A stretch of 8,676 bases of DNA. Source: Candidatus Aerophobota bacterium. Its GTDB lineage: Bacteria > Aerophobota > Aerophobia > Aerophobales > B3-G15. This document shows positions 1 to 8,676 of the stretch, piece after piece. The stretch's first letter is position 1. The number at the start of each line of letters is the position of its first letter. Both the position numbers and the translations under genes were made by a program. The notes under the pieces are model-generated. The model saw only the letters and a list, made by a program, of their open reading frames with translations, was not told the origin of the DNA and made no database searches. The stretch lies in assembly GCA_030607765.1 (NCBI GenBank), contig JAUWJJ010000032.1, positions 1 through 8,676 of the forward strand, read 5' to 3'.

Positions 1-507
1 ATTCCCCTTTATTTTTCTGTTTTTGAGATTGGCTACCGCAAGGATAGAATCATTGCCTTTCTTAATCCGGAAGGCGATCCCCAGGGGATAGGTTTTCATC
101 TCATTCATTCAAAGATCTCCTTAGGTTCGGGGGGTCTGTGGGGTTTGGGACCAGGCAAAGGTAAAGAAAAACTTTTTTATCTTCCCACTCCCCATACTGA
201 TTCCATATTTGCTGTAATTGGTGAAGAATTTGGTTTTGTGGGGACAAGCTTGATTGTGGCTTTGTTTTTTTTGATAGCTGTGCGGGGATTAAAAATAGCT
301 AAGAATGTTCCTGATGATATGGGCAAGTTATTAGCTTTAGGATTAACTTTTTTAATATGTTTTCAGGCAGTGATAAATATGGGAGTAGCTACAGTGATTC
401 TTCCTACTACTGGAGCTACTCTTCCTTTTATCAGTTATGGAGGGTCCTCCCTAATTGTTTGCCTTACCGCTGTGGGAATTTTGCTTAATCTATCAAGGGA
501 GCATTAA
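1..507 (+). CDS. ftsW: FtsW/SpoVE-type SEDS peptidoglycan polymerase, C-terminal 168 residues (5' end outside window)
   Basis: The frame is open from base 1 to the TAA at 505-507, so only the C-terminal part is present. SEDS proteins are polytopic inner-membrane glycosyltransferases that polymerise lipid II; FtsW does this at the division septum with a class B PBP. Visible family landmarks are a DPQGIGFH segment (about residues 36-43 of the fragment), SLGSGGLWG, then FYLPTPHTDSIFAVIGEEFG, and near the end LPTTGATLPFISYGGSS. The FYLP.PHTD.IFA form and the ending GILLNLSRE favour FtsW or SpoVE over RodA. No coding start is visible; the internal TTG at 145 is not a plausible start because conserved sequence continues upstream. 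The last two bases of the stop codon are also the first two bases of a dispersed repeat. Confidence 0.93.
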   Translation: MPLYFSVFEIGYRKDRIIAFLNPEGDPQGIGFHLIHSKISLGSGGLWGLGPGKGKEKLFYLPTPHTDSIFAVIGEEFGFVGTSLIVALFFLIAVRGLKIAKNVPDDMGKLLALGLTFLICFQAVINMGVATVILPTTGATLPFISYGGSSLIVCLTAVGILLNLSREH

Positions 508-589
508 TCACTGAAGACACTGAATATTTAAGGAAAAAGTAGCCGCAACCACTGAAGACACTGAATATTTAAGGAAAAAGTAGCCGCAA
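506..589 (+). repeat. Tandem 40-bp direct repeat, period 41, directly on the ftsW stop codon
   Basis: Bases 509-548 are repeated exactly at 550-589, one base apart. Each unit starts with CACTGAAGACACTGAA, continues through an A-rich stretch and ends with GTAGCCGCAA. The first part belongs to the CACTGAA family also found at 4850-4933. The last ten bases are the foot and half of the 5' arm of the GTAG hairpin family. Only the second copy continues into a full hairpin. Confidence 0.9.
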
Positions 590-636
590 TCTTCAAATTG
601 CGCTTGTCTTCGCAGGCTCTCAAGCCTCGCGACTAC
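580..636. repeat. Inverted pair of GTAG-foot hairpins (REPIN-like), upstream of the CYTH gene
   Basis: Plus-strand element 580-602: GTAG, C, then CGCAAT-CTTCAA-ATTGCG. After the linker CTTGTCTT (603-610) a minus-strand element occupies 611-636, with its foot GTAG read from 633-636 on the minus strand. Its stem (AGGCT/AGCCT plus CGC/GCG with a one-base bulge) is slightly degraded. Both feet point outward and the hairpins sit tail to tail. The same layout, in opposite orientation, is at 1248-1301. Confidence 0.8.
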
Positions 637-656
637 CATATCGACGAAAAGAGAAA

Positions 657-1160
657 ATGTTGGAAGTGGAAGTAAAGTTGAGGGTAAATCTTAAGCAAAT
701 AAAAGAAAAGCTTGAGAGAATTAAGGCCACTTTTATCAAAGAAGTAGAGCAGGAGGATACTTATTTTAGGCATCCTTGTTGGAATTTTAAAGATAGAGAT
801 GAGGCCTTAAGGATAAGGAAAGAAGAAAATATTTTTCTTCTAACTTACAAGGGACCCAGGCTGGATAGAGATACCAAAACCAGAGAAGAGGTGCAACTGC
901 AAGCAGAGCCTGATATGTTTGAGTTGTTAAAAGAGTTAGGTTTTTCTGAGTTAAAGAAGGTAAGGAAGAAAAGAAGGTTTTATCAGTGGAAAAGTCTGGA
1001 AGTTTGCCTGGATAAGGTGGAGGGATTGGGAGACTTTCTGGAAATAGAAGGGAAAAGTCGGGAGGATAAACCTCTTATAAGGGAACTTGCAAAAAAACTA
1101 AATATTAAAGAGGAATCCCTTAGCACTGTTTCTTATTTAGAGTTGCTCCTTAAAAAGTGA
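657..1160 (+). CDS. CYTH-domain protein (class IV adenylate cyclase CyaB / triphosphatase-like)
   Basis: A 167-residue soluble protein spanning one complete CYTH tunnel domain. CYTH enzymes bind triphosphates and divalent metal inside an eight-strand beta tunnel and act as triphosphatases, thiamine triphosphatases or class IV adenylate cyclases. The ExExK signature is at residues 3-7 (E3, E5, K7). Further expected charged positions are ALRIR (50-54), TYKGP (63-67), TREE (75-78), KKRR (104-107), LDKVEGLG (118-125) and FLEIE (127-131). The pattern, especially EDTYF at 33-37 and VEGLG, resembles the CyaB branch, but cyclase activity cannot be told from triphosphatase activity by sequence. The ATG at 657 puts ExExK at the usual N-terminal place. 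Only a weak purine tract (GAGA, 651-654) precedes it, and no clear promoter is seen, so it may be read through from ftsW. Inverted hairpin pairs flank it on both sides. Confidence 0.88.
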   Translation: MLEVEVKLRVNLKQIKEKLERIKATFIKEVEQEDTYFRHPCWNFKDRDEALRIRKEENIFLLTYKGPRLDRDTKTREEVQLQAEPDMFELLKELGFSELKKVRKKRRFYQWKSLEVCLDKVEGLGDFLEIEGKSREDKPLIRELAKKLNIKEESLSTVSYLELLLKK

Positions 1161-1247
1161 TGAGTAATATGTAATGTGTGCATGGGTTGATGGGAAGATG
1201 CGTGAATGGGAATATGGATAAATGTGGATGAAAGTGAGACGTGAGAT
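1161..1247 (-). terminator. Possible Rho-type termination region downstream of lptG (minus strand C-rich, G-poor)
   Basis: On the plus strand these 87 bases hold 32 G and only 3 C, so a minus-strand transcript leaving lptG would carry 32 C and 3 G with little ability to fold. That C-over-G bubble is what is known of rut sites. The stretch follows the hairpin pair at 1248-1301 in the lptG direction. There is no U-tract terminator here. Alternatively it may simply be degenerate repeat (GTGAGACGTGAGATG at its right end). Confidence 0.3.
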
Positions 1248-1301
1248 GTAGCCGCAGGCTTTAGCCTGCGAAAACAAGCGCAACCCAAAGGTTGCGGTTA
1301 C
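1248..1301. repeat. Inverted pair of GTAG-foot hairpins between convergent CYTH gene and lptG
   Basis: Plus-strand element 1248-1270: GTAG, C, then the perfect 8-bp stem CGCAGGCT/AGCCTGCG around TT. After the linker AAAACAAG (1271-1278) a minus-strand element spans 1279-1301 with foot GTAA and stem CGCAACC/GGTTGCG around TTTG. On the reverse strand this is the same two-hairpin element as 580-636. It lies between convergent genes, where such hairpins can act on both transcripts, but no T-run follows either one. Confidence 0.85.
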
Positions 1302-1317
1302 CCTTAGTCTTATTTGC

Positions 1318-2370
1318 TTATTCCATTCGGGTAACTAAGTATATTCCTACTGCTAAAAAGATAAGGTTGGGAATCCAGGCAGCTATTCCTGGAATAACAG
1401 TTCCACTTTTTCCCATAGCTTTAAAGAAAGCCATTGTCTCATAGTATCCAAAACTAATAATTAGTCCAAGAGCAAAACCTGCTCCCCTTCCTCTTTTTTT
1501 TAAAAAGATTCCAAGAGAAATACTCATAAATATTAAAATGAAATTGGCAAAAGGAGAGGAATATTTAAAGTTAAGTTCAGTTTCCAAATCTAAGGTTTTA
1601 AATCCGCTCTTTTTGTAATTCTCAAGATACTTTTTTAATTCCGATGTATTCATTTGTTCTGGGGGAAAATATTTTTTAGTGAAATAATCTGGTTTTTGAT
1701 CTATGTCAAAGGATTTTTGATGAAAATAAATTTCTTTTAACTCTTCTCCTAATAAGTATTCCCTTCCCTGGTAAAAGACCCATTTCCCCTTTTCCCATTT
1801 TCCTTCCTTAACTGTAGTTAATGAGGGAGGGAAGGATTTTTTGTAAATCAGAATATCTCTCATCTCGGCTTTTTCTAAGTTAAAGGACCTGATGTAAAAA
1901 ATATAAGAGGGAGGGACAGCAATAAAGGTGTTTTTTTGGATTTTTTCCTTAGCTATCCCAATGAAATTTCTTTGCTTTAGCTCATAGGAAAGTTGATTTG
2001 TTTGAAAAGTTAAAGTATTATCCAGAAACAGCATAGAAAAGGAAATAATTAATCCACAGGTAAAAATAGGAAGGAGGGTTCTTTTAATAGAAGTGCCACT
2101 GGTTTGAACAGCCTGGATTTGGTTGGTACCTTCAAGGTAAACGATGGTAAACAGGCAAGAAATAACAATGGAAACGGGACTAAGTAAGATCCAGAGGTAA
2201 GGAATTTGAAGAAAATAATAGTTAATGAGGAATACGAATTCTACCCCCATTTTAAACCTACTCATAGAGGTAAAAAAATCTGTCAGGATAAAAATAGCTA
2301 TAAAAAAGAGAATAAAAATAAAGTAAAATCTTAAAAATTCTTTAGCAAGGTATTTGTCTAAGATTCTCAT
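1318..2370 (-). CDS. lptG: LPS export permease, LptG-type (YjgP/YjgQ family)
   Basis: A 350-residue inner-membrane protein of the LptF/LptG family. With LptF and the ATPase LptB it would form the LptB2FG exporter that extracts lipopolysaccharide from the inner membrane and passes it to LptC/LptA. Three membrane helices lie at about residues 14-33, 52-78 and 99-117. A periplasmic beta-jellyroll domain follows (about 125-265), then three helices at about 272-290, 295-315 and 328-347. The cytoplasmic segment YLEGTNQIQAVQTSGTSIKR (78-97) is the coupling region that contacts LptB. FLDNTLTFQTNQ and AWIPNL (331-336) are family landmarks. Length fits the family. It starts 5 bases after the lptF stop with no clear Shine-Dalgarno, so coupling to lptF is likely. 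Assignment to G rather than F rests on being the second gene, and the two are hard to separate by sequence. No lptB or lptC is in the window. Confidence 0.85.
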   Translation of the reverse strand: MRILDKYLAKEFLRFYFIFILFFIAIFILTDFFTSMSRFKMGVEFVFLINYYFLQIPYLWILLSPVSIVISCLFTIVYLEGTNQIQAVQTSGTSIKRTLLPIFTCGLIISFSMLFLDNTLTFQTNQLSYELKQRNFIGIAKEKIQKNTFIAVPPSYIFYIRSFNLEKAEMRDILIYKKSFPPSLTTVKEGKWEKGKWVFYQGREYLLGEELKEIYFHQKSFDIDQKPDYFTKKYFPPEQMNTSELKKYLENYKKSGFKTLDLETELNFKYSSPFANFILIFMSISLGIFLKKRGRGAGFALGLIISFGYYETMAFFKAMGKSGTVIPGIAAWIPNLIFLAVGIYLVTRME

Positions 2371-2375
2371 AATAG

Positions 2376-3458
2376 TTATTTTCTAATAGAGCTTAAGTTT
2401 AACCAGATTCCTCCAGCTAACATTATAAAGTTGGGTATCCAGACACCCAAGAATATAGGTAGATATCCAGCTCTTGCCAGGAAATCCCCCGTTAGAAAAA
2501 GGATGTAATATGCAATTATTACAATAAGACTTATTCCCAGGCTTATAGACTTAGCTCCTTTTTTTATCTTGATTCCCAGAGGAACAGCTAAAATTCCCAC
2601 AAGAAAAGTTGCCAGAGGAATAGCTATCCTTCCCTGAAATTCGGCTTTTAGCTTTGTTTTATCTCTTTCCCCGAGTTCCTTTTCTTTTAATTTATCTTTT
2701 ATCTCTCTTAAACTCATTTCATAGCTACTTTTTTCTCTCTCCTTTTTTTTATCAAGCTGATTTTGAGGGTAGATAATCTGAGTGTTAGCCTCTCCCTTTT
2801 TAGTTAATTGATAATTTTTATTAAATCTGTAAATAGATACTTTTCTTAAAATCAAAGTTTCATTTTCAACCCTTCCTTCCTTAGCGAATGTAACTTGGGG
2901 AAACAACTGTGTTTTTTGAGGAAGGAATTCATATAAAATTAGCTCTTTCATTTCCTGATTTTTGAGATTTAAATGGTAGGTATAAAGTTTTCTTTCTTCT
3001 ATATCAATAATGGTACCCTCCTTAATCTGCAAGGTTGGTCTCTGGAGAATAATTTGTTGATAGGTTTTATGGTAAAGCTGGTTACATTGGGGAGTCAACC
3101 AGGTAGAAAAAAGGAGAGAAACTATAGTAAGGAAAAAGGCAAGAACAAAGATGGGAAGTTCTACTTGAAGCAAGCTTATACCAGAGCTACGGAAGGCAAT
3201 TATTTCTCCTTCACAGCTCAATCGACCAAAACTTAAGATTATGGAAAAGAGAAGAGCAATGGGAATTATTATATCTAAATAAGAGGGAAGGGTAAATAGG
3301 ACTAATTTTCCCACTAAAAAGGGGGGAGCATTTTTTACAAATATTAGCTCTGTCAAGTCGAAGATGATTCCCATAAATAAAATAAAATTAAAAAACAAAA
3401 GGCCAAAGACAAAAGGTGCCAACATTTCCTTTAATACATATCGGTGAATTATTTTCAT
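2376..3458 (-). CDS. lptF: LPS export permease, LptF-type (YjgP/YjgQ family)
   Basis: A 360-residue paralogue of the gene downstream and the first gene of the leftward lptF-lptG pair. Helices lie at about 12-36, 50-78 and 101-120. A periplasmic jellyroll domain follows (about 125-245), then a charged, helical stretch EREKSSYEMSLREIKDKL (240-257) leading to helices at about 277-297, 305-325 and 333-353. The coupling segment GRLSCEGEIIAFRSSGIS (78-95) is typical, with the E..AFRSSGIS core shared by LptF proteins. TPQCN (122-126) and WIPNF (340-344) are further family marks. Its role is the other half of the LptB2FG transmembrane pair. The ATG at 3458 has no Shine-Dalgarno before it, and the best promoter puts the transcript start only about 9 bases upstream, so this mRNA may be nearly leaderless. 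Confidence 0.87.
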   Translation of the reverse strand: MKIIHRYVLKEMLAPFVFGLLFFNFILFMGIIFDLTELIFVKNAPPFLVGKLVLFTLPSYLDIIIPIALLFSIILSFGRLSCEGEIIAFRSSGISLLQVELPIFVLAFFLTIVSLLFSTWLTPQCNQLYHKTYQQIILQRPTLQIKEGTIIDIEERKLYTYHLNLKNQEMKELILYEFLPQKTQLFPQVTFAKEGRVENETLILRKVSIYRFNKNYQLTKKGEANTQIIYPQNQLDKKKEREKSSYEMSLREIKDKLKEKELGERDKTKLKAEFQGRIAIPLATFLVGILAVPLGIKIKKGAKSISLGISLIVIIAYYILFLTGDFLARAGYLPIFLGVWIPNFIMLAGGIWLNLSSIRK

Positions 3459-3473
3459 TTTGTATCTTGTGTT

Positions 3474-3502
3474 ATTTTACTTAGCTTATCCTGTATTGTC
3501 AA
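3474..3502 (-). promoter_or_regulatory. Sigma70-type promoter for lptF-lptG
   Basis: Read on the minus strand: -35 TTGACA (3502-3497, 6/6), a 17-base spacer, -10 TAAAAT (3479-3474, 5/6). The expected start is near 3467, giving a leader of about 9 bases before the lptF ATG. Confidence 0.7.
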
Positions 3503-3590
3503 TCTTATTTTGTTTGGTTGCTAATCGATTAAAGCGAATAACCTCGCTTCCCTACCCCAAATGCAGAGCAAGTCTTTATACTTACCAGGA

Positions 3591-3685
3591 TAGGCAGACC
3601 TAAAGGTCTGCACTACAGAATCAAGCTATGTAGTTCAGGTCTTCAGACCTGATGATTTTAGGCAGACCTAAAGGTCTGCACTACA
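3591..3685. repeat. Three alternating GTAG-foot hairpins
   Basis: Two identical 27-bp minus-strand copies (3591-3617 and 3659-3685) carry the foot GTAG (read from 3613-3616 and 3681-3684), then T and the stem GCAGACC/GGTCTGC around TTTA. Between them a plus-strand copy (3630-3652) has GTAG, T and TCAGGTCT/AGACCTGA around TC. The first two are head to head, the second and third tail to tail. The middle copy differs from the others at three stem pairs, each changed on both sides so that pairing is kept. Confidence 0.88.
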
Positions 3686-3722
3686 TTTCTATTGGTAGGG
3701 GAGTAGCTTGCCTTCCATTTAC

Positions 3723-3751
3723 TTGACCTGTTAGATAAAATTATCTATAAT
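3723..3751 (+). promoter_or_regulatory. Sigma70-type promoter for the TPR/membrane-protein unit, with a palindrome in the spacer
   Basis: -35 TTGACC (3723-3728, 5/6), a 17-base spacer, -10 TATAAT (3746-3751, 6/6). The spacer and first -10 bases hold a perfect inverted repeat TAGATAA-AA-TTATCTA (3732-3747), well placed for a repressor. The expected start is near 3758, three bases before the next hairpin. Confidence 0.72.
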
Positions 3752-3760
3752 TTAAGAAAA

Positions 3761-3829
3761 GGGAGGCTAAAGCCTCCCCTATCAAAGAATAAGGATCTTC
3801 TCCATGGGTAGGGGCGACTTTAGTCGCCC
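3761..3829. repeat. Head-to-head pair of GTAG/ATAG-foot hairpins in the 5' leader of the TPR gene
   Basis: Minus-strand element 3761-3782: foot ATAG, stem GGGAGGCT/AGCCTCCC around TT. Plus-strand element 3808-3829: foot GTAG, stem GGGCGACT/AGTCGCCC around TT. Aligned foot to foot, the stems differ at two base pairs, both compensated. With the promoter at 3723-3751 both would be transcribed, the first within about three bases of the mRNA 5' end, where a stem-loop can protect RNA from decay (inference). Confidence 0.85.
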
Positions 3830-3878: not shown

Positions 3879-4409
3879 ATGATAGAGTTATGGAATATCG
3901 TAGGATTGGTGGGGTTTTCTGGGTTTATTATCTTAGCTATTTTTTCAGCAGTTATAGCCCTTACTGCAAAGAAAAAGCCCGACTTTTACATAATAAGTGC
4001 TGGGGTACTTCTCCTGCTTTTTGTAGGGAGCATCCTTTTTTTCCCTGGAGAGGAAGAAATTGCTGAGGCGATTGGTAATCCTCAAAAAATATACTCCCGG
4101 GGTTTAGAAAACGAGAAGGCGGGAGCTTTTGATAGGGCAGAGAAAGATTATGAAATAGTTCTACAAATAGATCCTAAAAATGAAAAAGCTATAAATAGAC
4201 TGGAACTTATAGGAAGAAGAGAAATAGCGCTCACCTTTTTGGAACGAGGAAAAAGATTAATGATAAAAGGCAAGTTTGCTCAGGCTCTGGTAAAGTTAAA
4301 AATGGCAGAAAGTATTGCTCCTGAAATAGATACGCTAAACGAAAACCCTCCCTTGAAAGAAAAAATAAAACTACAGATTAAAAGAGCTCAAGAATTTGTA
4401 AGTGAATAA
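3879..4409 (+). CDS. Small membrane-anchored TPR protein, function unknown
   Basis: A 176-residue protein with two N-terminal membrane helices (about 7-30 and 37-56, separated by the basic turn AKKKPD), followed by a soluble domain with two tetratricopeptide-like units. The first unit is about 72-105 (YSRGLENEKAGAFDRAEKDY, then VLQIDPKNEKA). The second is about 115-148 (TFLERGKRLMIKGKFAQALV, ending AESIAPEI). The LQIDP and A.......G.F..A spacing is the usual TPR pattern. TPRs bind other proteins, so a scaffold or assembly role at the inner face of the membrane is possible. The family gives no specific partner. By the positive-inside rule the turn and the TPR domain could be on opposite or the same sides, so the topology is uncertain. 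ATG 3879 has AAGG eight bases upstream (3867-3870). The leader is about 120 bases and holds two hairpins. Confidence 0.75.
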   Translation: MIELWNIVGLVGFSGFIILAIFSAVIALTAKKKPDFYIISAGVLLLLFVGSILFFPGEEEIAEAIGNPQKIYSRGLENEKAGAFDRAEKDYEIVLQIDPKNEKAINRLELIGRREIALTFLERGKRLMIKGKFAQALVKLKMAESIAPEIDTLNENPPLKEKIKLQIKRAQEFVSE

Positions 4410-4851
4410 AAAAATGGATTTTCTTACTAAGATTTATTTAAGGTATATTTTAAAGCAAGGTAAAGAAGCTCCTTTTTTCTCCTTTCTCCTTTTTTTATTA
4501 ACCATTCTTACCTCCCGATTAATAGTAATGTGGGTAGAGGCAGGAAGGCCTTTGCTTAAGTTTTTCATGGTATATGATTACCATATTCATCACTTTTACT
4601 TAGGCATATTTCTTCTAATTGTTTCCAGCTGCTTGTCTTTAGCCAGAAATGAAAATGGATGGGTACGAGAAGTAAAAATACTTAACAGTATTTTGTTTGG
4701 AGTAGGATTGGGTTTTATAACTGATGAGTTCAGTTTGCTTTTAACTATGGAATTTGATGTAAAGGGAGATTACTGGGCTCCTCATTCCTATTATCTTATG
4801 GCACTGCTAAGCGGGGTATTTATCTACATTTTGTTTTTTAAGAAAAAATAA
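4402..4851 (+). CDS. Uncharacterised four-helix membrane protein with HxHH...DE motif
   Basis: Two starts are possible: GTG 4402, overlapping the TPR gene by eight bases (149 residues), or ATG 4414, four bases after its stop (145 residues). Neither has a clear ribosome binding site, so coupling to the upstream gene is likely. Counting from ATG 4414, helices lie at about 21-41, 60-77, 89-109 and 126-142. Polar residues sit at helix ends: YDYHIHHFYLG (54-64), GFITDEFSLLL (100-110) and GDYWAPHS (118-125). The HxHH, DE and DYW..HS set resembles a widespread family of small bacterial and archaeal membrane proteins of unknown function, as far as I recognise it. The histidines and acids could bind metal or form an active site, but this is not shown. 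The final TAA overlaps the first bases of a dispersed inverted repeat. Confidence 0.72.
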   Translation: MNKKMDFLTKIYLRYILKQGKEAPFFSFLLFLLTILTSRLIVMWVEAGRPLLKFFMVYDYHIHHFYLGIFLLIVSSCLSLARNENGWVREVKILNSILFGVGLGFITDEFSLLLTMEFDVKGDYWAPHSYYLMALLSGVFIYILFFKKK

Positions 4852-4933
4852 CCACTGAAAACACTGAATTCACTGAAAATTTTGGAAAGGATTATACTAT
4901 AGCTTATCTGTGTTTTCAGTGTCCTCAGTGGTT
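4850..4933. repeat. 84-bp imperfect inverted repeat of the CACTGAA family (MITE-like)
   Basis: Left arm 4850-4868 (AACCACTGAAAACACTGAA) and right arm 4915-4933 pair at 17 of 19 positions around an AT-rich centre. The left arm continues as three 9-base units CACTGAAWW (4853-4879). The left arm matches 547-565 at 18 of 19 bases. No T-run follows the right arm, so it does not look like an intrinsic terminator. From here to the terminator-like sequence at 5038 nothing else is recognisable. Confidence 0.8.
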
Positions 4934-5037
4934 AAAAAAAGAAAAAATTTGAATAAAGTAAACCCCGTTAGTTGTAGCTGCTCGTGATGGGATGGAGATT
5001 AACTTGGACAATTATTAGCCTACTTTTCGGCAAATAT

Positions 5038-5271: not shown

Positions 5272-5283
5272 AGGAGGAGGTGA
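5272..5283 (+). promoter_or_regulatory. Very strong Shine-Dalgarno that decides the start at 5289
   Basis: AGGAGGAGGTGA is a near-perfect anti-16S match and ends five bases before ATG 5289. An in-frame GTG at 5280 lies inside this sequence and so is unlikely to be the start. Confidence 0.85.
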
Positions 5284-5288
5284 ATGAA

Positions 5289-6068
5289 ATGAGTAGAATA
5301 AAAAAATATCTATATGTAAGTGTTTCTTTGATTATTGTAGTTATTTTGGGGATTGTAGCCATACAATACATTTATTCCCCGGGTAAAACCAGCGCCCAAT
5401 TAACTGTTTTGTGTGGTGGGTCTTTCAAATACCCTGTTGAAGAGCTGGTTGAGGCGTTTGAGAAGGAAGCAAGCATAGATGTCGAAATATCCTTTGGCGG
5501 ATGCGAAGACCATCTTCCCCATGTTAAGATGCATAATGTTGGTGATATCTATATAGCTCATACTCCATATATGAAATACACTGAAGATGCGCAAGCTCTC
5601 TCAAGATGGGTTCAGGTAGGATATGTTCGCCCGGTTTTGGTTGTAAAAAAAGGCAACCCGCTCTATCTAAAAGGAATCCAAGACCTTACCCGGCCCGGTT
5701 TAAAAGTTGCTTTGCCTAATCCAGAATTCGCTACCTGCGGAGAAATGGTTGAAAAGCTTTTCAAGAAGAAAGGTATTTGGGATGATGTAAAGAAGAATGT
5801 GGGCAATGCTTTTTTCAAAACCCATGCTCAAACTGCAATCGCAATTAAAGTTGGAGGCCGCGATGCTGGTATGATGTGGAATGGTATTGTCTATAACTGG
5901 CGTGATGTGATTGAAATTGTCCCTACACCCTATGAATACGACCGGGTAATTGAAGTGGGGGTTATTGGGCTCAGTTACTCAAAGCATCCAAAACTCGTTG
6001 AGGAATTCTTAAAGTTTTCAGAGAAAAACGGAAAGGCGATATTCAAGGAATTTGGTTTTACAAAGTAA
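5289..6068 (+). CDS. ModA-like periplasmic oxyanion-binding protein, first of two (divergent pocket)
   Basis: A 259-residue extracytoplasmic solute-binding protein and first gene of the importer. A basic N-terminus and a hydrophobic stretch (about 8-28) form a signal peptide or anchor. There is no lipobox cysteine; cleavage near TSA-Q (35-37) is possible. The mature part begins LTVLCGGSFKYPVEELVEAF (38-57), the place where ModA proteins have their first oxyanion-binding serine. The second usual ligand loop (Y/F-GGSGTL in relatives) reads FGGCEDHLPHV (69-79), losing the S-G-T. Later landmarks are VRPVLVVKKGNP (113-124) and VGGRDAGMMWNGIVYNW (188-204), with N where the next protein has D. These changes suggest altered ligand specificity relative to molybdate- or tungstate-binding ModA, but the ligand cannot be named. 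The next gene encodes a clear paralogue that would use the same permease. Confidence 0.78.
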   Translation: MSRIKKYLYVSVSLIIVVILGIVAIQYIYSPGKTSAQLTVLCGGSFKYPVEELVEAFEKEASIDVEISFGGCEDHLPHVKMHNVGDIYIAHTPYMKYTEDAQALSRWVQVGYVRPVLVVKKGNPLYLKGIQDLTRPGLKVALPNPEFATCGEMVEKLFKKKGIWDDVKKNVGNAFFKTHAQTAIAIKVGGRDAGMMWNGIVYNWRDVIEIVPTPYEYDRVIEVGVIGLSYSKHPKLVEEFLKFSEKNGKAIFKEFGFTK

Positions 6069-6086
6069 AATAAATGGAGAGGAAAA

Positions 6087-6878
6087 ATACGAAACAAAAT
6101 AATAATTGTTTTAAGTGTAATTGTCCTTGCACTAATTGTAGTGCTCTCTAACTATAGCCAGGGACAGGCAAAACAGATAGAGGAGAAAAGATTACTCTTC
6201 TATTGCGGAGCAGGTCTTCGTCCTCCTGTAAGTGAGATTGTTAAAATATTCTCTGAAGAACGCAATGTAAAGATTGAGTGTACCTATGCAGGAGCGGCTA
6301 CTCTCCGGACCCAAATACAACTGACAAAAAGGGGAGATTTTTTTATGCCGGGTGATGTCTCCTGGGTAGAGCGCCTTGAACCTGCCGGGCTTGTCGAATC
6401 TAAGCATACCGTTTGCTACTTTATTCCGGTAATCCTTGTAAAAAAGGGTAATCCTAAGAATATCAAAACTCTCAAAGACCTTGTAAAACCGGGAATAATG
6501 TTGGGACTTGGTGACCCTGAGGTAATCCCCGTTGGTAAAATAGCTATCAGAATTTTTAAAAAGAACAATATCAAGGTGGAGGAGGTTAAAAAGAACCTTG
6601 TTTTTAACTCGCTTACGGTAAACGAACTTGGAGTGCAGATCCAGGTAGGCAAGGTTGATGCCGTAATTGTCTGGGATGCGACTGCCTCCTACTTTGCAAA
6701 TTGGGGTGATACAGTTAAAATTCCCAGAGATAAGAATATTATTTCAACGGTTGCCATAGCCCAACTTAGTTGCTCCAAGCATAAAAAACTTGCCAGGGAG
6801 TTTGTGAACTTTGTCATTTCAAAGCGAGGCCAAGAGATCTTCCGAAAACACCACTTTTCAACTGAGCTAACAGAATGA
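6087..6878 (+). CDS. modA: ModA-like periplasmic oxyanion-binding protein, second of two; start codon atypical or frameshifted
   Basis: A paralogue of the preceding binding protein. From the ATA at 6087 the frame reads a basic start (RNK), a hydrophobic signal core (about 5-20) and SNYSQGQAKQ, then the mature domain from KRLLFYCGAGLRPPVSEIVK. The first ordinary start in frame is GTG 6141, which would cut away nearly all of the signal peptide. GGAG at 6076-6079 lies seven bases before the ATA, so this could be ATG mutated to ATA. Alternatively ATG 6074 with one A fewer in the A5 run at 6083-6087 would read MERKIRNKIII in frame. Family marks are YAGAATLRTQI (the ligand loop, where S-G-T relatives have A-A-T), GDFFMPGDVSWV, VILVKKGNP, DPEVIPVG and VDAVIVWDATASYF. 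This is the more canonical molybdate/tungstate-type binding protein of the two. Its TGA overlaps the permease ATG (ATGA). Confidence 0.75.
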   Translation: MRNKIIIVLSVIVLALIVVLSNYSQGQAKQIEEKRLLFYCGAGLRPPVSEIVKIFSEERNVKIECTYAGAATLRTQIQLTKRGDFFMPGDVSWVERLEPAGLVESKHTVCYFIPVILVKKGNPKNIKTLKDLVKPGIMLGLGDPEVIPVGKIAIRIFKKNNIKVEEVKKNLVFNSLTVNELGVQIQVGKVDAVIVWDATASYFANWGDTVKIPRDKNIISTVAIAQLSCSKHKKLAREFVNFVISKRGQEIFRKHHFSTELTE

Positions 6879-7693
6879 GTCAGCAAAGAAAAAAAGCACT
6901 GGTTCGTGGTTTAAGTGAGCATCTTTTCAGCACATGGGTCATGTTTTCCCTGTTTCTTTTCGTCGTCTTTGTGGTAATACTTATTCTGGGAGATATTGCT
7001 TATGTAGACAAAGAATCTTTTCATGAGGCTTTGCGTTCTCCGGAAATTCGGTTCGCCGTAAAACTCAGCATGATAACCTCCATAATCACAACTCTTATCG
7101 GTATGCTTATCGCTATTCCGACTGCTTACGCACTTAGCCGTTATCGATTTTTCGGGCATACTCTTGTAGATTCAATCGTGGATATCCCAATTGTTTTTCC
7201 TCCACTGATCATCGGACTTTCACTGCTAATCTTTTTCCATGCAGGCCCCGGGCTTTGGCTGGAAAATCACGGGATAAAATTCGTTTACCAGCCAGCAGGT
7301 ATTGTGTTATGCCAATTTCTCTGCGCAGTACCTTTTGGAATTCGGGCAGTTAATACTACATTTAATCAGATTAATCCTCGTGTTGAGCATGTTGCCTTGA
7401 CATTAGGTTGTACTCAATGGGGAGCTTTTTTCCGTATTGCACTACCAATGGCGCGTAACGGCATAATAGCCGGAACTATCCTTACCTGGGCACGTGCATT
7501 TGGAATTTTTGGGCCTCTGATGGTCCTTGTGGGTGCCGTGCGTATGCGCACAGAAGTATTACCTACTACGATTTACCTTGAACAATCCATCGGACGCATT
7601 GAAGTAGCGCTTGCTGTCGCCGTGATAATGATAATAATGGCTACGATTGCCCTGGTTGCAATTCGTCTGCTGGGATTACGATATGAATTTTGA
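6875..7693 (+). CDS. modB: ModB-like ABC permease for molybdate/tungstate-type oxyanion
   Basis: A 272-residue inner-membrane permease (BPD_transp_1 type) expected to act as a homodimer with the ATPase encoded next. Helices lie at about 21-39, 60-85, 98-121, 139-158, 195-220 and 243-268. The stretch SIVDIPIVFPPLIIGLSLL (100-118) corresponds to the PLVLPPVVVG segment typical of ModB. The EAA loop that docks on the ATPase is EHVALTLGCTQWGAFFRIAL (171-190), continuing to G200. The start overlaps the stop of the second binding protein by four bases, indicating translational coupling. The EAA loop and PP motif make the class firm; molybdate against tungstate or another oxyanion is not settled by sequence. 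Arginine is mostly CGN here, unlike the AGR of the genes left of 5000. Confidence 0.86.
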   Translation: MSQQRKKALVRGLSEHLFSTWVMFSLFLFVVFVVILILGDIAYVDKESFHEALRSPEIRFAVKLSMITSIITTLIGMLIAIPTAYALSRYRFFGHTLVDSIVDIPIVFPPLIIGLSLLIFFHAGPGLWLENHGIKFVYQPAGIVLCQFLCAVPFGIRAVNTTFNQINPRVEHVALTLGCTQWGAFFRIALPMARNGIIAGTILTWARAFGIFGPLMVLVGAVRMRTEVLPTTIYLEQSIGRIEVALAVAVIMIIMATIALVAIRLLGLRYEF

Positions 7694-7705
7694 TTGGATG
7701 CTTTA

Positions 7706-8676
7706 ATGATAACCGTAAACAATCTTAATTATAGCATCGGTAATTTTTCCCTACGCATCTCGTTTCTTGAGGTTGCTGATGGGGAATACTTTGTCCTTCT
7801 TGGGCCAACAGGCTCAGGTAAGACGCTTTTCATTGAATGCTTATGTGGTTTGATCCGTCCCAATGCTGGCAAAATTGAGATTGATGACCGGAATGTTACC
7901 AACCTTCCTCCACGTTTTCGCCAAATTGGATATGTCCCTCAGAACTATGAACTTTTCCCTCATATGAATGTTGAGGAAAACATCATATTTGCTCTTAAAA
8001 TAAGGGGGATGTCACATAAAGAATCCTGTAAGCTGGTTCAACCTATCGTCGAGATACTATCCCTGGCTCCCTTTCTCAAGCGTTCAACGATGACCTTGAG
8101 CGGTGGCGAGCGGCAAAAGGTTGCACTGGCAAGAGCACTTGCCAGGCGACCAAATTTGCTACTGCTTGACGAACCTGTAAGCGCCTTGGATGAGCAGAGC
8201 CGCCAGAGGGTTTGCGAGGAGCTTCGGCGAATTCAAAAAGAATTGTCGGTTACAACAATTCATGTCAGCCACAACTTTCAAGAGGCCATAACTGTTTCAG
8301 ACCAAGCCGGCGTTTTGCAGAACGGAAAAATTGCACAAAGGGGCCCCATTACTGAACTAATTAGAAAGCCAAGAAATGAGTTTGTGGCTCGTTTCTTCCG
8401 TGCAGAGAATATTTTTGAGGGTATGGCTGAACCTTGCTCCAATGGAGCTATCATTAACTTTGCAGGCCATAGAATCAATGTGAGGCGAAGATGCCAGGGT
8501 CAGGTAAAATTCATTGTCAGGCCCGAACTAATAAAAATTGCACCATTTGAAGTTAAAACTAAAAATGCAATTCCAGCTGTTCTGATAAATGCTTGTGATA
8601 TGGGAGTGTATAAGCAGTTTGAGTTTGATGCTGGGGTCAGGATTTTGGTGTATGCCATGCCTGAGAACGAGGGTTA
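7706..8676 (+). CDS. modC: ModC-like ABC importer ATPase, 3' end outside window
   Basis: The frame is open from ATG 7706 to the right edge (323 complete residues). It begins 12 bases after the permease stop with only a weak ribosome binding site. The nucleotide-binding domain is complete: Walker A GPTGSGKT (33-40), Q-loop VPQN (77-80), signature LSGGERQ (131-137), Walker B LLLLDEP (151-157), D-loop SALD (159-162) and switch histidine H189 in HVSHN. After about residue 235 (ENIFEG) comes the start of a C-terminal TOBE-like regulatory domain (FIVRPELIKI at 269-278), as in ModC and other oxyanion or sugar importers. It would drive uptake through the ModB-like permease. The domain layout and operon position support the molybdate/tungstate class; the TOBE part is cut, so regulatory ligand binding cannot be judged. 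Confidence 0.87.
   Translation, partial: MITVNNLNYSIGNFSLRISFLEVADGEYFVLLGPTGSGKTLFIECLCGLIRPNAGKIEIDDRNVTNLPPRFRQIGYVPQNYELFPHMNVEENIIFALKIRGMSHKESCKLVQPIVEILSLAPFLKRSTMTLSGGERQKVALARALARRPNLLLLDEPVSALDEQSRQRVCEELRRIQKELSVTTIHVSHNFQEAITVSDQAGVLQNGKIAQRGPITELIRKPRNEFVARFFRAENIFEGMAEPCSNGAIINFAGHRINVRRRCQGQVKFIVRPELIKIAPFEVKTKNAIPAVLINACDMGVYKQFEFDAGVRILVYAMPENEG

What the first reader, a model, noticed from the sequence alone, without database searches (positions are those of the whole stretch)
580..3829. A superfamily of nine hairpins sharing a GTAG foot and a CTTYRR apex but with different stems
Nine hairpins at four places (580-602, 611-636, 1248-1270, 1279-1301, 3594-3616, 3630-3652, 3662-3684, 3761-3782, 3808-3829) can be written as one rule: GTAG (once ATAG, once GTAA), usually one base, a stem of about 6 bp, a CTTTAG/CTTCAG/CTTCAA/CTTTGG-type apex (CTTGAG in the bulged 611-636 copy) and the complementary stem. 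They come in inverted pairs with short linkers. A GTAG foot beside an imperfect or perfect palindrome is the known substrate form of REP elements and their Y1 transposases (RAYT/TnpA_REP), and paired copies match REPINs. What is unusual is that one genome segment carries several stem subfamilies with foot and apex kept constant. This may be a multi-lineage REP system with its own transposase elsewhere.
Basis: partly seen in the sequence, partly recalled or inferred. Interest (0 to 1): 0.82.

Follow-up and report, generated by a model that had tools for sequence, protein, structure and literature searches.

The report
GTAG-footed REP hairpins with variable stems
The nine little hairpins are members of a known class of bacterial spreading repeats (REP/REPIN elements served by a RAYT-type enzyme), here in a little-studied bacterial phylum, where mirror-image neighbours almost never share the same stem sequence.

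Summary
A rule-based scan finds eight of the nine hairpins; 500 dinucleotide shuffles gave 0-2. The ninth (611-636) is a bulged variant that recurs in other genomes. The window's own genome is not held; the nearest held relative is an Aerophobetes MAG (LptF 83% identical). In that phylum 10 of 17 genomes match the hairpin model. In a 296-kb sample of one, 101 of 118 TTYA-loop hairpins have the GTAG foot and 101 of 106 GTAG-foot hairpins the TTYA loop. Two genomes have a RAYT gene flanked by the window's stem types. The window's three junctions lack the hairpins in the nearest relative. These are REP/REPIN elements. Fixed foot and loop with a free stem fits published group-3 recognition (PMC8266576) and published Haemophilus REPs (PMC2817692). 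Extra finding: inverted neighbours have unlike stems in 69 of 70 cases; direct neighbours are alike in 28 of 47, mostly in one genome. A published idea, that unlike pairs escape long-hairpin removal, fits. New member of a known kind. Not shown: a RAYT in the window's own genome.

The parts
580..602 (+). REP, type A variable arm: GTAG-C-CGCAATC-TTCA, one C.A mismatch under the loop
   Evidence: stem CGCAATC also found once in the G017 sample
611..636 (-). REP, bulged type: GTAG-T-CGC-G-AGGCT-TGAG-AGCCTGCG; with 580-602 a feet-out pair, 8-base linker
   Evidence: same class 21 times in the G017 sample, 2 in G005, 1 in G004, none in the G011 sample
1248..1270 (+). REP, type A conserved arm: GTAG-C-CGCAGGC-TTTA-GCCTGCG
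   Evidence: commonest stem in the G017 and G011 samples
1279..1301 (-). REP, type A variable arm: GTAA-C-CGCAACC-TTTG; with 1248-1270 a feet-out REPIN, 8-base linker
   Evidence: stretch absent from L001
3594..3616 (-). REP, type B: GTAG-T-GCAGACC-TTTA-GGTCTGC
3630..3652 (+). REP, type B partner: GTAG-T-TCAGGTC-TTCA-GACCTGA
3662..3684 (-). REP, type B: second copy of GCAGACC; with 3630-3652 a feet-out REPIN, linker tgattttag
   Evidence: G017 (L081 5036-5090) holds the same pair of stems with linker tgaatttag
3761..3782 (-). REP, type C: ATAG-GGGAGGC-TTTA-GCCTCCC
   Evidence: GGGAGGC also in G017 and G011 samples
3808..3829 (+). REP, type C partner: GTAG-GGGCGAC-TTTA-GTCGCCC; feet-inward pair with 3761-3782
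   Evidence: a related, imperfect feet-inward pair in L001 944-1012 at another locus
506..587 (+). 41-bp tandem duplication whose unit ends in GTAGCCGC, so a truncated foot sits 41 bp upstream of the intact REP

Best explanation
The nine hairpins are REP elements, mostly arranged as REPINs (inverted pairs): short non-autonomous repeats dispersed by a RAYT (TnpA_REP, Y1 HUH nuclease). Likely mechanism: on single-stranded DNA the RAYT recognises the unpaired GTAG foot and the TTYA loop on a well-paired short stem, and cuts and rejoins the strand. Because foot and loop are read and the stem needs mainly to pair, stems can drift by paired changes, which gives several stem families with one foot and one apex. 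Inverted partners almost always carry unlike stems, probably because like-stemmed inverted pairs would fold into one 23-bp hairpin that hides the two small hairpins and is removed by the host. Shown here: foot-loop linkage, pairing covariation, copy number and extragenic placing in relatives, RAYT genes flanked by the same hairpins in relatives, absence of the hairpins at the window's junctions in the nearest relative, and near-absence of like-stemmed inverted pairs. Inferred: that a RAYT moves them, what it reads, and why pairs are unlike.
For: Window scan 8 hairpins against 0-2 in 500 shuffles. G017 sample: 101 of 118 TTYA hairpins have GTAG, 101 of 106 GTAG hairpins have TTYA; G011 sample 59 of 69 and 59 of 64. 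RAYT genes flanked by CGCAGGC/CGCAACT/CGCAGGA hairpins in L009 and L010; NF047646 over cut-off; L010 protein matches PDB 4er8 TnpA_REP, E 7e-7. G004's RAYT with its hairpins sits in a 616-bp stretch between ribBA and ribH; none of the 15 other genomes where both genes were found, G005 included, shows a RAYT there. Hairpin midpoints inside ORFs of 100 aa or more: 8 of 132 in the G017 sample against 103 expected, 13 of 118 in G011 against 100. Junctions empty of hairpins in L001. Variable-arm pairs 5-7: 48 of 51 cells paired (G-T counted as paired); 2000 shuffles had mean 31.4 and maximum 43. Published: group-3 Marinomonas REP loop TTTA with T12, T13 and A15 needed, position 14 free, and stem complement swap only moderately harmful (PMC8266576, section 20).
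Against: The window's own genome is not held, so its copy number and RAYT are unknown. G011 has the most model matches (158, with only 150 of 821 candidates scored) but no RAYT-family match: a RAYT is either lost or outside the assembly. AUK284, the nearest relative, has a RAYT flanked by other inverted repeats, not by these hairpins. The bulged class (611-636) lacks the TTYA loop, so the loop rule is not universal; and another group-3 enzyme (S. maltophilia) reads a different loop base. Insert boundaries are not clean: the G004 insert carries 34 and 41 extra bases outside the hairpins. In the fold test 20 of 58 real pairs still prefer a long imperfect hairpin. In the G011 sample direct neighbours are alike in only 3 of 16, so the like/unlike contrast by orientation rests mainly on G017 (25 of 29).
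Confidence: 0.88

Rival explanations
1. The hairpins are RNA elements (transcription terminators or mRNA 3'-end stabilisers) kept for that role, and the GTAG foot is incidental.
For: Extragenic placing; 4 of the 9 hairpins pass a weak terminator-like test; REPs are proposed to act on mRNA (PMC3733652, sections 14 and 17).
Against: The whole list is little above shuffles (13 found, mean 9.2, sd 3.3), the T runs behind the hairpins are broken, and 5 of 9 fail. GTAG is unpaired yet tied to the loop. The 3594-3829 group lies between divergent genes, and gaps holding hairpins in relatives show no steady convergent bias. The same hairpins flank RAYT genes. A secondary RNA role remains possible.
Confidence: 0.08
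2. Each stem type is a separate REP lineage with its own dedicated RAYT, and the likeness of foot and loop is convergence.
For: REP classes each tied to their own RAYT are published (PMC3686654 section 6, PMC3733652 section 16). Types B and C differ from A in spacer and stem.
Against: In L010 one RAYT is flanked by two stem types in the same pairs. Type A variable arms differ within one genome while joined to the same conserved arm. No type B or C RAYT was found among the 5 RAYT genes over cut-off.
Confidence: 0.25
3. Ends of IS200/IS605-type insertion sequences or remnants of them.
For: Same enzyme superfamily; an IS200/IS605 member occurs in AUK284 (L003).
Against: The IS200/IS605 copy in L003 shows no GTAG hairpins; the hairpins stand without any gene between them, as 54-base pairs.
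Confidence: 0.03

Closest known systems
Haemophilus influenzae and Thioalkalivibrio REPs with RAYT (Nunvar 2010, PMC2817692, passages seen)
   Same: GTAG, perfect stem, TTCA or TTTA loop: GTAGGGTGGGCTTcAGCCCACC / GTAGGGTGGGCTTtAGCCCACC; GTAGGTCGGCCTTCAGGCCGAC
   Different: Different stems; gammaproteobacteria; no conserved-arm/variable-arm pairs noted in the passages seen
Marinomonas REPtron Mb, group 3 TnpA_REP (PMC8266576, abstract, sections 10, 17, 20, 24 and find passages)
   Same: Perfect palindrome, GTAG foot, TTTA loop; foot and loop matter, stem complement swap only moderately harmful
   Different: 5-bp stem and two spacer bases there, 7-bp stem and 0-1 spacer here; membership of this enzyme in group 3 not tested by a tree
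GTAG families and heterodimers of Di Nocera 2013 (PMC3733652, abstract, sections 5, 8, 14, 16, 17 part 1)
   Same: GTAG-tagged hairpins, HH and TT pairs, heterodimers preferred in most families, several families in some genomes; RAYTs with either REPs or terminal inverted repeats
   Different: Its figures are not held, so whether one of its 24 families has these exact stems is unknown; the rate of like and unlike neighbours by orientation is measured here
[not shown]
   Same: Unlike REPs joined in inverted pairs, one REPtron for several REP types
   Different: Longer, bulged stems; group 2 enzyme

Membership tests
REP / REPIN (GTAG superfamily) | Short palindrome with unpaired GTAG at one foot | tested here: met
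   8 of 9 perfect or near-perfect hairpins, 2 of them with a one-base variant foot; foot linked to loop in relatives
REP / REPIN (GTAG superfamily) | Many extragenic copies per genome | tested here: met
   In relatives only: G017 132 in 296 kb, G011 118 in 521 kb, few in ORFs (stretches partly chosen for matches); own genome not held
REP / REPIN (GTAG superfamily) | Inverted pairs with conserved linkers | tested here: met
   58 feet-out pairs with gaps up to 35 bases over 6 sources; type B linker nearly the same in window and G017
REP / REPIN (GTAG superfamily) | RAYT gene flanked by the same hairpins | tested here: met
   2 of 5 RAYT genes over cut-off, in 2 of 17 genomes; type A stems only; not testable in the window's own genome
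REP / REPIN (GTAG superfamily) | Mobility (filled and empty sites) | tested here: inconclusive
   Window junctions empty in L001, but boundaries are not clean and deletion is not excluded
Group 3 TnpA_REP system | Perfect palindrome, loop bases read by enzyme | tested here: inconclusive
   TTYA conserved with varying stem; bulged class is an exception; no biochemistry
Group 3 TnpA_REP system | Enzyme falls in group 3 in a tree | not tested
Intrinsic terminator | GC-rich stem followed by T run | tested here: inconclusive
   4 of 9 hairpins pass a weak test, 5 do not; whole list 13 against 9.2 in shuffles
REP / REPIN (GTAG superfamily) | Enzyme cuts and rejoins the hairpin substrate | not testable with these tools
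   needs purified protein

The most novel reading that the evidence does not exclude
In Aerophobetes, and with similar unlike pairs in genomes of a second phylum, one RAYT reads only foot and loop, and the REPIN is an obligate unlike pair: one conserved arm (CGCAGGC in Aerophobetes) and one fast-changing arm (CGCA plus three free pairs). Stem renewal in the changing arm is favoured because a pair with like arms would make a lethal or quickly deleted long hairpin. Stem diversity would then be selected by the host's hairpin-removal machinery, not by the transposase. (Probability lowered from 0.30 on recheck, because like direct neighbours are common in G017 but not in G011.)
Probability: 0.27. 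Interest if true: 0.55.

Novelty: new member of a known kind. Interest (0 to 1): 0.35.

Why it matters
It extends a well-defined class of domesticated transposase and its repeats to a phylum for which a search for 'Aerophobetes' together with 'repetitive extragenic palindrom' found no paper in the library. It gives natural substrates in which foot and loop are fixed and the stem varies, so the published in-vitro recognition rule can be tested on a natural set. The rarity of like-stemmed inverted neighbours (1 of 70; 0 of 58 feet-out pairs where re-pairing predicts 14.4) puts a number on a published preference for heterodimers that its authors call unexplained.

Tried and rejected
Rfam over the window: no match. 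Loose test of all 256 feet in the window alone: GTAG not singled out. Own-genome search for PF01797: impossible, no genome held. RAYT of L010 in the second phylum at E 1e-20: 0 of 16 genomes, though hairpins match in 6 of 16; the cut-off was strict, so a more distant RAYT is not excluded. Flank comparison to find the exact moved unit: not clean. Terminator reading not favoured. Low-complexity GTGAGACGTGA-like tracts near hairpins: strong in G017 (20 of 43 words within 80 nt, 2.8 expected), none in G011 (0 of 14) or G004 (0 of 10), so not a general partner. Literature strings of the hairpins: 0 papers. Searches for REPIN/RAYT with heterodimer and RAYT with candidate phyla or MAGs gave listings only; beyond papers already named, nothing on this phylum was seen in them.
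Full report
WHAT IS THERE. The window holds cell-envelope and transport genes: an FtsW/RodA-type protein, a CYTH protein, two LptF/LptG permeases, a protein with weak TPR matches, a protein without a Pfam match, two solute-binding proteins, a permease and an ATPase. No genome is held for it. The nearest held relative is an Aerophobetes MAG, AUK284 (L001), LptF 83% identical, with gene order kept from FtsW to the protein at 4402-4851. Nine hairpins lie in three intergenic stretches. Oriented by the foot they read GTAG, 0-1 base, 7-bp stem, TTYA loop, stem. They fall into type A (580-636, 1248-1301), type B (3594-3684) and type C (3761-3829). 611-636 is a bulged relative of the type A conserved arm.

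IS IT CHANCE. The rule scan finds 8 in the window; 500 dinucleotide shuffles gave 448 with 0, 50 with 1 and 2 with 2. A looser test of every tetramer as foot in the window alone does not favour GTAG, so the foot claim needs larger samples. In 296 kb of genome G017, perfect 7-bp/4-base hairpins number 334 (counted on both strands) against a mean of 68 in three shuffles within 100-base blocks. Of 118 with a TTYA loop, 101 have GTAG at the foot; of 106 with GTAG, 101 have TTYA. In 328 kb of G011 the figures are 59 of 69 and 59 of 64.

COPIES AND PLACING. A covariance model of ten hairpins (five from the window, two from G004, three from G017) matches 10 of 17 genomes of the phylum at E 0.1 or better, with 158 and 154 matches in G011 and G017, where only 150 candidates were scored. 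At E 0.001 it matches 6 of 16 genomes of a second phylum, reached from L002, an Elusimicrobia MAG by its title. The relaxed scan gives 132 in the G017 sample (2 in one shuffle), 118 in G011 (3), 15 in G004 (0), 12 in G005 (0), 11 in G014 (0), 1 in G015 (0) and 3 in G001 (0), of which one is the type C copy of L001. Most midpoints lie outside ORFs of 100 aa or more: inside are 8 of 132 in G017 (103 expected), 13 of 118 in G011 (100), 5 of 15 in G004 (12.5), 3 of 12 in G005 (10), 1 of 11 in G014 (9.1), 2 of 3 in G001 (2.1), 0 of 8 in the window (5.8). Samples were partly chosen for having matches, so densities are not genome-wide.

THE ENZYME. NF047646 (REP-associated tyrosine transposase) matches 7 of 17 genomes, 4 over the cut-off, with 5 genes over it. 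Two of the five, L009 in G004 and L010 in G017, are directly flanked by the window's hairpin types: CGCAGGC and the near type CGCAGGA in L009; CGCAACT plus CGCAGGC pairs in L010. The other three (L008, L011, L015) are flanked by inverted repeats containing GGGGTCAG or GGGGACAG, which fit the GGGGWSAS motif of published TIR-flanked transposases (PMC3733652, section 16). The L010 protein aligns with E. coli TnpA_REP, PDB 4er8, E 7e-7. It has 1131 relatives at E 0.001, of which 120 were listed, some named from Elusimicrobia, WOR-3, Omnitrophica and Firestonebacteria. In G004 the RAYT with its hairpins lies in a 616-bp stretch between ribBA and ribH that G005 lacks; in none of the 15 other genomes where both genes were found, G005 included, is a RAYT seen there. 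The insert has 34 and 41 extra bases outside the hairpins, so the exact moved unit is not defined.

FILLED AND EMPTY SITES. L001 lacks the hairpins at all three places: between CYTH and LptG the aligned blocks abut where the window has about 170 bp; between LptF and the TPR gene L001 is shorter; between FtsW and CYTH it has largely unrelated sequence. Deletion in L001 is not excluded. A related, imperfect type C feet-inward pair lies elsewhere in L001 (944-1012).

PAIRS. Among 58 feet-out pairs with gaps up to 35 bases (G017 12, G011 34, G004 3, G005 4, G014 3, window 2) none joins two equal stems (inner six bases compared); random re-pairing within genomes gave a mean of 14.4 and a minimum of 5 in 5000 trials. 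Up to 150 bases, inverted neighbours are unlike in 69 of 70, the one like pair being in G017. Direct neighbours are alike in 28 of 47: 25 of 29 in G017, but 3 of 16 in G011 and 0 of 2 elsewhere. Many like direct pairs are probably tandem duplicates. The scan sees TTYR-type loops only, so bulged arms are not in these counts, and pairs are copied as units, so the counts are not independent events. Type A pairs mostly join CGCAGGC to CGCA plus a changing triplet: AGT, ACC, ACT, GCT, CCC, CCT and others. In 39 pairs anchored only on the conserved arm, the far CTAC and two of four loop positions, the first two loop bases, left free, are TT in all 39, and pairs 5-7 of the changing arm covary (48 of 51 cells paired over 17 distinct arms, shuffle mean 31.4). 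In the second phylum other unlike pairs occur, such as CGCAGGA with CGCAATC and AAACCC with AAGGGC, so the conserved arm is not universal. DNA folding puts a like-armed pair about 14 kcal/mol in favour of one long hairpin; for CGCAGGC with six observed triplets the best fold with paired ends gains only 0.3 to 3.4. Of 58 real pairs 38 keep two hairpins as the best fold and 20 do not. Perfect inverted repeats with arms of 18 or more do occur in the samples (3 in all, none of this type), so assembly does not simply lose them.

WHAT IS KNOWN. The foot-loop rule is in print for Haemophilus and Thioalkalivibrio REPs (PMC2817692, passages). The group-3 Marinomonas enzyme needs T12, T13 and A15 of a TTTA loop and tolerates much stem change, though not mismatches (PMC8266576, section 20). 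Orthologous RAYTs flanked by different REP classes are known (PMC3686654, section 6). Preference for heterodimers is described and called unexplained, with escape from hairpin-removing enzymes offered as a reason (PMC3733652, section 14). A search for REPs with Aerophobetes gave no paper, and for the hairpin strings none; figures and supplements were not readable.

VERDICT. A real, multi-copy REP/REPIN system of known kind in a new host group, with a clear pairing rule worth testing.

Noticed in passing
window 506-587: 41-bp tandem duplication whose unit ends in GTAGCCGC, leaving a truncated REP foot 41 bp upstream of the intact one; similar half-REPs stand beside pairs in G011. Possibly slippage at the hairpin.
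   Followed up: partly
window 4849-4934: 31-bp imperfect inverted repeat built of CACTGAAAACACTGAA-type words, much like the word in 506-587.
   Followed up: no
L004 1430-2168 (AUK284): RAYT gene flanked by terminal inverted repeats AAAAGGGGACAGGCTACTTTTT, fitting the GGGGWSAS motif, not by GTAG hairpins.
   Followed up: partly
G017 sample (L069-L088): Low-complexity GTGAGACGTGA-like words cluster near hairpins: 20 of 43 within 80 nt, 2.8 expected; not so in G011 (0 of 14) or G004 (0 of 10). A similar tract is in the window at about 1150-1247.
   Followed up: partly
window 5280-8674: Two adjacent, different solute-binding protein genes ahead of one permease and one ATPase gene.
   Followed up: no
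L005 1474-2451 (AUK284): Y1 transposase-like protein with a DnaA-like C-terminal part.
   Followed up: no
G005: L153 3897-3976 and L154 8414-8480: Perfect inverted repeats sharing AAAAGGGGACGTGATTA with 38 and 31 bases between the arms, like solo terminal repeats of the GGGGAC type.
   Followed up: no
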